Origin: a virus
Virus record (IMG/VR): IMGVR_UViG_3300036760_000319
Coordinates: 1 to 21,196 of that record
Reading direction: 5' to 3' (one strand)
DNA length: 21,196 nt
Within the stretch, counting starts at the first letter, position 1. Each line of letters starts with the position of its first letter. The position numbers and the translations under genes were made by a program. Shown here piece after piece: positions 14,330 to 19,695 of the stretch. The notes beneath the pieces are model-generated. The model was not told where the DNA came from and searched no databases. It was given only the letters and a program-made list of their open reading frames with translations.

Positions 14330-14349
14330 GTTGATAGTCTCCTAATCAA

Positions 14350-14379
14350 AGAATAAGGGGTCGAAGCCCCCAGAGTCAA
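14350..14379 (-). promoter_or_regulatory. Candidate promoter for the portal operon
   Basis: On the minus strand TTGACT (14374-14379) is followed after 18 bases by TATTCT (14350-14355), with the expected start near 14343 and a leader of about 14 bases to the portal ATG. The spacer also contains GGGG and CCCC arms (small loop with a UUC-type turn) followed by T-rich sequence, so it may also act as a weak terminator for the winged-helix gene upstream. Both readings rest only on sequence pattern. Confidence 0.45.
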
Positions 14380-14397
14380 GGCATGGGCTGATTTGAC

Positions 14398-15360: not shown

Positions 15361-15774
15361 CTAAATCGCATTCTCGTCCGTCTTAGCCGCCTGCTTCCTT
15401 TCAGCCGCCCGTGCCATGTACTCGGCCTGCTTCTCTGGGTGTTGTTCATGAAAGTGGGCGAAGCCCTCTTTCCGGCATGTCCGGCAGTAGCGTTCGAGCG
15501 ATCCGTTTGGTCGCTGCCAATAGTAGGTATTCTCCGGTGTGAACTCGTGCCCATTTTTGCAATGTGTCAGAGCGCCCCGCCAACGCTTGCCCGACCTACT
15601 GTGTCGGCGCTTGACACAAGCGACGCAGCGGCGCTCGTTAGGTCGGCATGGCGGGATATAGCAGGTGGCGGGGTCATCGAACAGAACCAGATGCCCATTT
15701 TTGCAAACACGGTGTGCCCTGCCCTTGGCTGCCGCCTGCTTGATCATGCTCGCAAGCTCGTCATAGTCAATCAT
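15361..15774 (-). CDS. Double zinc-finger protein, HNH-associated type
   Basis: This 137-residue basic protein holds two copies of one zinc-binding unit. Copy one has CKNGH (Cys24, His28) and CVAC (Cys50, Cys53). Copy two has CKNGHEFTPENTYYWQ (Cys72, His76) and CRTC (Cys97, Cys100). The CKNGH pentapeptide is identical in both. The second copy is the finger often found at the start of phage HNH homing endonucleases, but here no H-N-H catalytic core follows; the protein ends in a basic helix (YMARAAERKQAA). It may be a DNA-binding remnant of a homing enzyme or a regulator. AGGAGA lies 7 bases before the ATG. It is the first gene after a strong promoter and a structured leader. Confidence 0.72.
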   Translation of the reverse strand: MIDYDELASMIKQAAAKGRAHRVCKNGHLVLFDDPATCYIPPCRPNERRCVACVKRRHSRSGKRWRGALTHCKNGHEFTPENTYYWQRPNGSLERYCRTCRKEGFAHFHEQHPEKQAEYMARAAERKQAAKTDENAI

Positions 15775-15799
15775 CTTTCGTCTCCTATACGACCGATGA

Positions 15800-15859
15800 C
15801 CCCGGCGGGACTGCGAGAAGCGCCGGGGCCATCATGTCGTCAGCTAGATTCTCGCAGTC
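15800..15859 (-). promoter_or_regulatory. Structured leader: two overlapping inverted repeats
   Basis: CCCCGGCG (15800-15807) and CGCCGGGG (15821-15828) form a perfect 8-bp stem with a 13-base loop. Eleven bases of that loop, GACTGCGAGAA (15809-15819), are exactly complementary to TTCTCGCAGTC at 15849-15859. In the minus-strand RNA the order is a-b-a'-b', so the two stems compete or form a partial pseudoknot. The a arm would begin about two bases after the predicted transcription start. This arrangement resembles an attenuator or riboregulator, or a pair of DNA operator half-sites beside the promoter. Pairing is read directly; function is inferred. Confidence 0.6.
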
Positions 15860-15867
15860 GCATGACC

Positions 15868-15896
15868 AAGATAAGGGGTTTCTGAAAGCTTGTCAA
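15868..15896 (-). promoter_or_regulatory. Strong sigma70-type promoter for zinc-finger cassette
   Basis: On the minus strand a consensus TTGACA (15891-15896) is followed after exactly 17 bases by TATCTT (15868-15873). The predicted start is near 15861, giving a leader of about 87 bases to the zinc-finger ATG at 15774. The element lies in the gap after the small membrane gene (stop at 15922). It is the best promoter match I find in the window. Confidence 0.75.
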
Positions 15897-15921: not shown

Positions 15922-16116
15922 TTATTCCATCGCATAGCCGATGAGGAGCAGCACGGCGCCGAGCACAAGGAGCGCCCACGGCCAGCCTGCCAGGAATCCT
16001 ACGCTCAGGATGAGGCAGCCGAAGCCGACCAGATCAATGATGCGGGGTAGGCTGGGGCGGGTACGCGCAGAAAAACGGCTGAGTGCCATCCTGATGGGCA
16101 GACGGGGCATTCTCAT
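15922..16116 (-). CDS. Small two-helix membrane protein
   Basis: The start is placed at the ATG at 16116, because AGGAGG at 16124-16129 lies 7 bases upstream; the longer reading to 16194 would run into the terminase gene. The 64-residue product begins with a basic segment (MRMPRLPIRMALSRFSARTRP) and then has two hydrophobic stretches, IIDLVGFGCLILSVGFLAG and ALLVLGAVLLLIGYAM, separated by a tryptophan-proline turn (WPW). Both ends are predicted to lie on the same side. Small membrane proteins of this kind often sit beside terminase genes; the function is unknown, and holin-like activity is one possibility. Confidence 0.7.
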   Translation of the reverse strand: MRMPRLPIRMALSRFSARTRPSLPRIIDLVGFGCLILSVGFLAGWPWALLVLGAVLLLIGYAME

Positions 16117-19665: not shown

Positions 19666-19695
19666 ACGATACTGGGGGGAGCGCCTAACTGTCAA
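19666..19695 (-). promoter_or_regulatory. Integrase promoter
   Basis: On the minus strand TTGACA (19690-19695) is followed after 18 bases by TATCGT (19666-19671), with the expected start near 19659, about 20 bases before the GTG of the integrase. One copy of the dispersed TTAGGYGC motif (19681-19688) sits inside the spacer, where a bound protein would block RNA polymerase. Confidence 0.65.
19681..19688 (-). repeat. Dispersed motif TTAGGYGC, copy 4
   Basis: GTTAGGCGCTC on the minus strand, placed between the -35 and -10 boxes of the integrase promoter. Weakest copy outside the 8-base core. Confidence 0.5.

What the first reader, a model, noticed from the sequence alone, without database searches (positions are those of the whole stretch)
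15800..15896. Strong promoter with a self-competing leader RNA inside the late gene row
A TTGACA-17-TATCTT promoter is followed, two bases after its predicted start, by an RNA whose two stems exclude each other. An 8-bp stem (15800-15807 with 15821-15828) has a 13-base loop, and 11 bases of that loop match the 5' end of the transcript (15849-15859). In the order a-b-a'-b' the full 11+8 bp pseudoknot looks sterically tight, so a switch between two states is more likely. It could be an attenuator, a target for a small RNA or protein, or, at DNA level, paired operator half-sites.
Basis: partly seen in the sequence, partly recalled or inferred. Interest (0 to 1): 0.62.

Follow-up and report, generated by a model that had tools for sequence, protein, structure and literature searches.

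The report
Two-state leader of phage zinc-ribbon gene
A phage gene for a small zinc-ribbon protein starts with a short RNA leader that can fold in two mutually exclusive ways, one hiding and one exposing the start codon, so it may be a small translation switch; only one phage is known to carry it, so this is unproven.

Summary
A 10/12 sigma-70 promoter (15896-15868, minus strand) is followed by a leader of about 87 nt. An 11-nt 5' segment (a, 15859-15849) perfectly complements 11 of 13 loop bases of a hairpin. Interlocking this good appears in 5 of 6000 shuffles of the window and nowhere else in 1.28 Mb of related phage DNA.

New here: the b' arm also complements the start-codon region. State A (a:a') leaves b' to form a -10 kcal/mol hairpin that pairs the AUG. 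State B (b:b', about 5 kcal/mol better) frees the AUG. State A becomes possible first during transcription, and nested refolding to B has a high computed barrier. I therefore read it as a folding-controlled translational leader for a 137-aa zinc-ribbon protein related to the C-terminal part of phage HNH endonucleases.

The promoter has a syntenic counterpart in the one near relative (L076). The hairpin segment is absent there, where the downstream gene differs. No homologous leader was found, so no covariation test was possible. Function is a single-sequence inference; the mechanism is of a known kind.

The parts
15868..15896 (-). sigma-70-type promoter TTGACA-17-TATCTT; predicted start about 15861
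   Evidence: syntenic TTGACA-18-TATCTT in L076
15849..15859 (-). segment a, GACTGCGAGAA, 5' end of the predicted transcript
15821..15840 (-). segment b with extension (14 + 5 paired bases, bulged A at 15835)
15809..15819 (-). segment a', TTCTCGCAGTC, in the 13-nt loop of b:b'
15789..15807 (-). segment b' with extension; pairs with b in state B, and its 15800-15795 and 15792-15789 pair with the start region in state A
15782..15785 (-). Shine-Dalgarno GGAG; in the 7-nt loop in state A, in a weak basal helix in state B
15770..15781 (-). start-codon region (AUG at 15774-15772), paired with b' in state A
15785..15835 (-). possible 16-codon leader ORF MMAPALLAVPPGSSVV*, stop TAG overlaps the Shine-Dalgarno; no Shine-Dalgarno of its own (weak)
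15361..15774 (-). 137-aa protein with two CKNGH...C..C zinc ribbons; matches only the C-terminal part of phage HNH endonuclease families; no HNH-domain match in Pfam

Best explanation
The element is the 5' untranslated leader of a small accessory (moron-like) transcription unit inserted between the terminase/membrane-protein genes and the portal gene. It most likely controls translation of the zinc-ribbon protein by order of folding. As RNA polymerase leaves the promoter, a and a' can pair first (state A). That traps b in the loop, and the freed b' then pairs with the start-codon region and masks the AUG. Later, or when a factor or a ribosome unwinds a:a', b pairs with b' (state B, the stable form) and the AUG becomes free. 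Shown here: promoter motif, both pairings, their exclusion, computed energies, AUG masking in A. Inferred: that the RNA is made, that A persists long enough to matter, and that this lowers protein output.
For: Interlock rarer than chance. Prefix folding: at 52-64 nt A is the best fold; B overtakes at about 66 nt; at 92 nt A -35.5, B -40.3 kcal/mol. The computed nested path from A to B needs about 27 kcal/mol, so A could be long-lived. In A the AUG is unpaired with probability 0.0; in B 0.91-0.95 (transcript to 15770). The AUG-pairing hairpin is -9.9 to -10.3 kcal/mol; only 0.2% of shuffled leaders match it with the AUG fully paired. The RNA strand folds better than its complement, -39.0 against -31.3 kcal/mol, because of G-U pairs. 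The syntenic promoter in L076 supports transcription. Precedent: hairpins control translation of homing endonucleases in T4-type phages, including one (seg43(25)) just upstream of a ribosome binding site (PMC2988022); metastable nascent hairpins mask a Shine-Dalgarno in aapA3 (PMC6733600).
Against: A single sequence: no homologous leader, so no covariation. The only near relative, L076, lacks the hairpin segment at the same place. State B dominates at equilibrium. The real barrier may be far lower through branch migration, which nested models cannot treat. The AUG-masking result was found after looking. AUG availability in B falls to 0.4-0.7 when more coding sequence is included. No trigger is identified.
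Confidence: 0.4

Rival explanations
1. A plain stable 5' hairpin (state B) that protects the mRNA or spaces the ribosome binding site; the complementarity of a to the loop is chance or a relic of a local inverted duplication and has no role.
For: B is the equilibrium fold from every start site tested. Hairpins just upstream of HNH genes occur in other phages. Fold energy z is only about -2.7.
Against: 11/11 complementarity to the loop is rare (5 of 6000 window shuffles), and b' also fits the start codon.
Confidence: 0.3
2. A DNA operator: paired half-sites of a repressor at +3 to +13 and about 40 bp downstream, possibly with a second palindrome 21 bp centre to centre.
For: Inverted repeat 11/11 directly at the start site.
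Against: No further copies near other promoters of the window; imperfect positions of the long stem are G-U pairs on the transcribed strand only; no such site at the L076 promoter; start-codon complementarity is then unexplained.
Confidence: 0.13
3. Leader-peptide attenuation: ribosomes translating the short ORF 15835-15785 (with a Pro-Pro-Gly stretch that could slow them) open b:b' and reinitiate at the gene start, since the stop overlaps the Shine-Dalgarno.
For: ORF geometry: the stop codon lies in the Shine-Dalgarno; the ORF runs through b, a' and b'.
Against: No Shine-Dalgarno for the ORF; a 16-codon open frame is common by chance; no homologue to test coding constraint.
Confidence: 0.1

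Closest known systems
RNA hairpins controlling translation of T4-type homing endonucleases (I-TevI, I-TevII, I-TevIII, segB, mobE; seg43(25))
   Same: Phage gene related to homing endonucleases, own promoter next to the gene, stable hairpin at or just upstream of the ribosome binding site (PMC2988022).
   Different: There one hairpin masks the Shine-Dalgarno in read-through RNA and the internal promoter escapes it. Here the whole leader lies downstream of the promoter, two structures compete and the AUG is masked. The protein shows no HNH core.
Metastable nascent structures of type I toxin mRNAs (aapA3; hok)
   Same: A 5' structure forms first during transcription and is later replaced by a more stable one; in aapA3 the early hairpins block ribosome access (PMC6733600).
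   Different: In those mRNAs the final fold is translationally inert; here the final fold exposes the AUG. No antisense RNA is known here.
Leader of the MS2 maturation gene
   Same: Order of RNA folding sets when translation is possible (described in PMC6733600).
   Different: In MS2 the early state allows translation and the final state blocks it; here the computed order is the reverse.
Translational attenuators of the erm type
   Same: Alternative stems, with a segment that pairs either upstream or with the start region (own knowledge).
   Different: The leader ORF here lacks a Shine-Dalgarno, and no inducer is known.

Membership tests
Two-state (attenuator-type) translational leader | Two mutually exclusive stems in the 5' leader | tested here: met
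   rarity
Two-state (attenuator-type) translational leader | One state masks the ribosome binding site or start codon, the other frees it | tested here: met
   Computed only: AUG unpaired 0.0 in A, 0.91-0.95 in B; weaker (0.4-0.9) when more coding sequence is included
Two-state (attenuator-type) translational leader | Structure conserved with compensatory changes in homologues | tested here: inconclusive
   No homologous leader found
Two-state (attenuator-type) translational leader | Expression responds to the switch | not testable with these tools
   needs reporters and probing
Leader-peptide attenuator | Translated leader ORF with its own initiation site | tested here: not met
   ORF 15835-15785 has no Shine-Dalgarno (sequence)
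Intrinsic transcription terminator or transcriptional attenuator | GC-rich stem followed by a U run | tested here: not met
   no U run after b' (sequence); not among the terminator-like sites
Known RNA family (Rfam 15) | Score at or above the gathering cut-off | tested here: not met
HNH endonuclease (for the downstream gene) | HNH catalytic core | tested here: not met
   no Pfam match; PHROG match only to model positions 152-225 of 281 and 162-230 of 414
DNA operator of a phage repressor | Repeated sites at regulated promoters | tested here: not met
   only the two half-sites themselves; 4 matches with up to 2 mismatches against 6.4 expected

The most novel reading that the evidence does not exclude
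A phage leader in which the extreme 5' end of the mRNA captures the loop of the main hairpin during transcription, so that the start codon is masked in nascent RNA and freed only after refolding: a built-in delay timer for an accessory zinc-ribbon gene.
Probability: 0.2. Interest if true: 0.5.

Novelty: new member of a known kind. Interest (0 to 1): 0.3.

Why it matters
If real, it extends the known translational control of phage homing-endonuclease-like genes from a single masking hairpin to a two-state leader set by folding order. It would be a small, self-contained system for studying co-transcriptional RNA folding. It also shows an accessory cassette that keeps its promoter position while exchanging both leader and gene between related phages.

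Tried and rejected
Searches for homologous leaders: DNA similarity in phage records, the 11-bp inverted repeat with a variable gap and the hairpin core in viral contigs: none. Relatives by zinc-ribbon protein share only the CKNGHEF zinc ribbon; by the adjacent HTH protein: none; by terminase, portal and capsid: one near relative, L076/L156, with a different cassette gene, and L157 with no cassette. The genome search does not draw relatives for a virus record. Idea that read-through RNA hides segment a and so folds differently from RNA started at 15861: a local hairpin of -5.2 kcal/mol exists, but the A-B gap changes by only about 1 kcal/mol; rejected. Full pseudoknot: rejected on geometry. Terminator: no U run. 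Forcing a:a' with a soft constraint failed and was redone with hard constraints. Rfam: nothing above cut-off. Solved structures: no meaningful match for the protein. Structure prediction of the protein was not run, because its relatives align over only about 40 residues.

Full report
What is there. The window is an incomplete phage record of 21,196 bases with no close isolate: the best terminase match in phage records is 31% identical. Nearly all real genes lie on the minus strand. Around the finding the order of transcription is terminase (17387-16128), a small membrane protein (end 15922), promoter, leader, a 137-aa zinc-ribbon protein (15774-15361), a 317-aa protein without family match (15351-14398; L076 has a replication-initiation-like protein in this place) and the portal protein (14329-12959).

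Promoter. TTGACA-17-TATCTT at 15896-15868 matches the sigma-70 consensus at 10 of 12 positions. The nearest relative found, L076 (terminase 83% identical), has TTGACA-18-TATCTT 23 bp after the stop of its membrane gene, against 25 bp in the window. This is the best evidence that the promoter is real. In the same place L076 carries a different 91-aa gene behind a short leader without hairpin, followed by a replication-initiation-like protein. In L157 (portal 63% identical) the terminase is followed almost directly by the portal. The promoter-leader-gene block is therefore an exchangeable accessory cassette, and the hairpin segment goes with this cassette, not with the phage group.

The pairings. 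The RNA fold shows a longer hairpin than described: 14 contiguous pairs, a bulged A and 5 further pairs, then a weak base of 3 + 3 pairs reaching the Shine-Dalgarno; -39.0 kcal/mol, z -2.8, none of 200 shuffles as good. Both imperfect positions within the 14-bp stem are G-U pairs on the transcribed strand, and the complementary RNA strand folds worse, -31.3 kcal/mol. This favours an RNA over a DNA reading, though weakly. By itself the fold energy is not extreme for this GC-rich phage. What is rare is the interlock of a hairpin loop with an 11/11 complement nearby: 5 of 6000 shuffles of the whole window, no other case of 11 or more in 1.28 Mb of related phage loci, and 6 of 20000 shuffles of the leader by a stricter joint score.

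Exclusion. The full pseudoknot is not possible on geometry. One base joins a' to b' and would have to span 11 bp; with the long stem formed, the short stretch left between a and the stem base cannot reach the loop. The two states are alternatives.

With a:a' held, the best fold puts b' onto the start region: 15800-15795 with 15775-15770 and 15792-15789 with 15781-15778, leaving GGAG in a 7-nt loop and the AUG fully paired. This hairpin is worth about -10 kcal/mol. Of 3000 shuffled leaders with the start region fixed, 1.1% fold as well there and 0.2% also pair the whole AUG. Of 23 gene starts of the window folded the same way, the most stable is -9.1 kcal/mol, and most lie between 0 and -6 (that window of sequence is shorter upstream than the hairpin, so the comparison is rough). 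With b:b' held, the AUG is 0.91-0.95 unpaired and the Shine-Dalgarno lies in a weak helix. When 15 to 70 more bases of coding sequence are included, the AUG in B is partly paired with other partners (0.4-0.97 unpaired), while in A it stays at 0.02-0.11.

Order of folding. At lengths of 52-64 nt only or mainly state A exists; B becomes equal near 65-66 nt and better thereafter; at 92 nt the ensembles are -35.5 (A) and -40.3 (B). The best nested refolding path found from A to B climbs to -7.3 kcal/mol, about 27 kcal/mol above A. This is an upper estimate, since branch migration through a partial pseudoknot is not modelled. A transient or long-lived masked state is thus plausible, but its lifetime is unknown. 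RNA read through from upstream shows the same order of states with a gap changed by about 1 kcal/mol, so the start site itself is not a switch.

The gene. The protein has two CKNGH-type zinc ribbons. PHROG models of HNH endonucleases match it only beyond their first 150 positions, and Pfam finds no HNH domain. Relatives in viral contigs share mainly the ribbon at residues 60-104. It may be a nucleic-acid-binding remnant or a stand-alone relative of HNH homing endonucleases; whether it binds its own leader is open.

Comparison. T4-type phages control several homing endonuclease genes with hairpins at the ribosome binding site next to an internal promoter; for seg43(25) of Aeromonas phage 25 a very stable hairpin lies just upstream of the site without masking it, with unknown effect (PMC2988022). 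Nascent metastable hairpins block translation of the aapA3 toxin mRNA, and folding order also matters for hok and for the MS2 maturation gene (PMC6733600). The present leader would be a further member of that broad kind. It differs in that the early state masks the AUG and the late state frees it, and in that the trap is made by the very 5' end of the RNA. A preliminary comparison also suggests that phage HNH-type genes have structured leaders somewhat more often than other genes (6 of 50 with z below -3 against 5 of 176), but at least three of the six are close relatives of each other.

Verdict. The sequence feature is real and unlikely to be pure chance; the promoter is very probably real. 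The two-state translational leader is the most likely function (0.4), a plain hairpin with incidental complementarity next (0.3), a DNA operator and leader-peptide attenuation less likely. Without a second sequence this cannot be settled computationally.

Noticed in passing
L067, L068, L033 (just before 4725) and L028 (just before 3307): HNH endonuclease genes in these viral contigs are preceded by a very strong hairpin (z -4.4 to -6.3 where measured) right after the upstream stop codon. The stem changes in a paired way between L067 and L068 (GGTTAA/TTAGCC against GGATAA/TTATCC), and all four share GGGGAAG in or next to the loop. It looks like a conserved RNA element, unrelated in sequence to the window leader.
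   Followed up: partly
L157:2765-3033: The match to the window's head protease is interrupted by about 270 bp and skips two query residues, as if something is inserted in the protease gene.
   Followed up: no
window 14330-14397: A second promoter-like site (TTGACT-18-TATTCT at 14379-14350) precedes the portal gene and overlaps a small hairpin; L076 has TTGACA-18-TACGCT in the corresponding place.
   Followed up: no
window 19666-19695: TTGACA-18-TATCGT, the only other 10/12 promoter-like site of the window, lies just upstream of the integrase gene.
   Followed up: no
window 15927-15944: Weak terminator-like hairpin followed by AATAATTTTA at the end of the membrane-protein gene, just upstream of the promoter.
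   Followed up: no
window 15829-15840 and 15770-15781: The two segments that compete for b' resemble each other (ACGACATGATGG and ACGAAAGATGAT); the start region may have been duplicated to make the leader.
   Followed up: no
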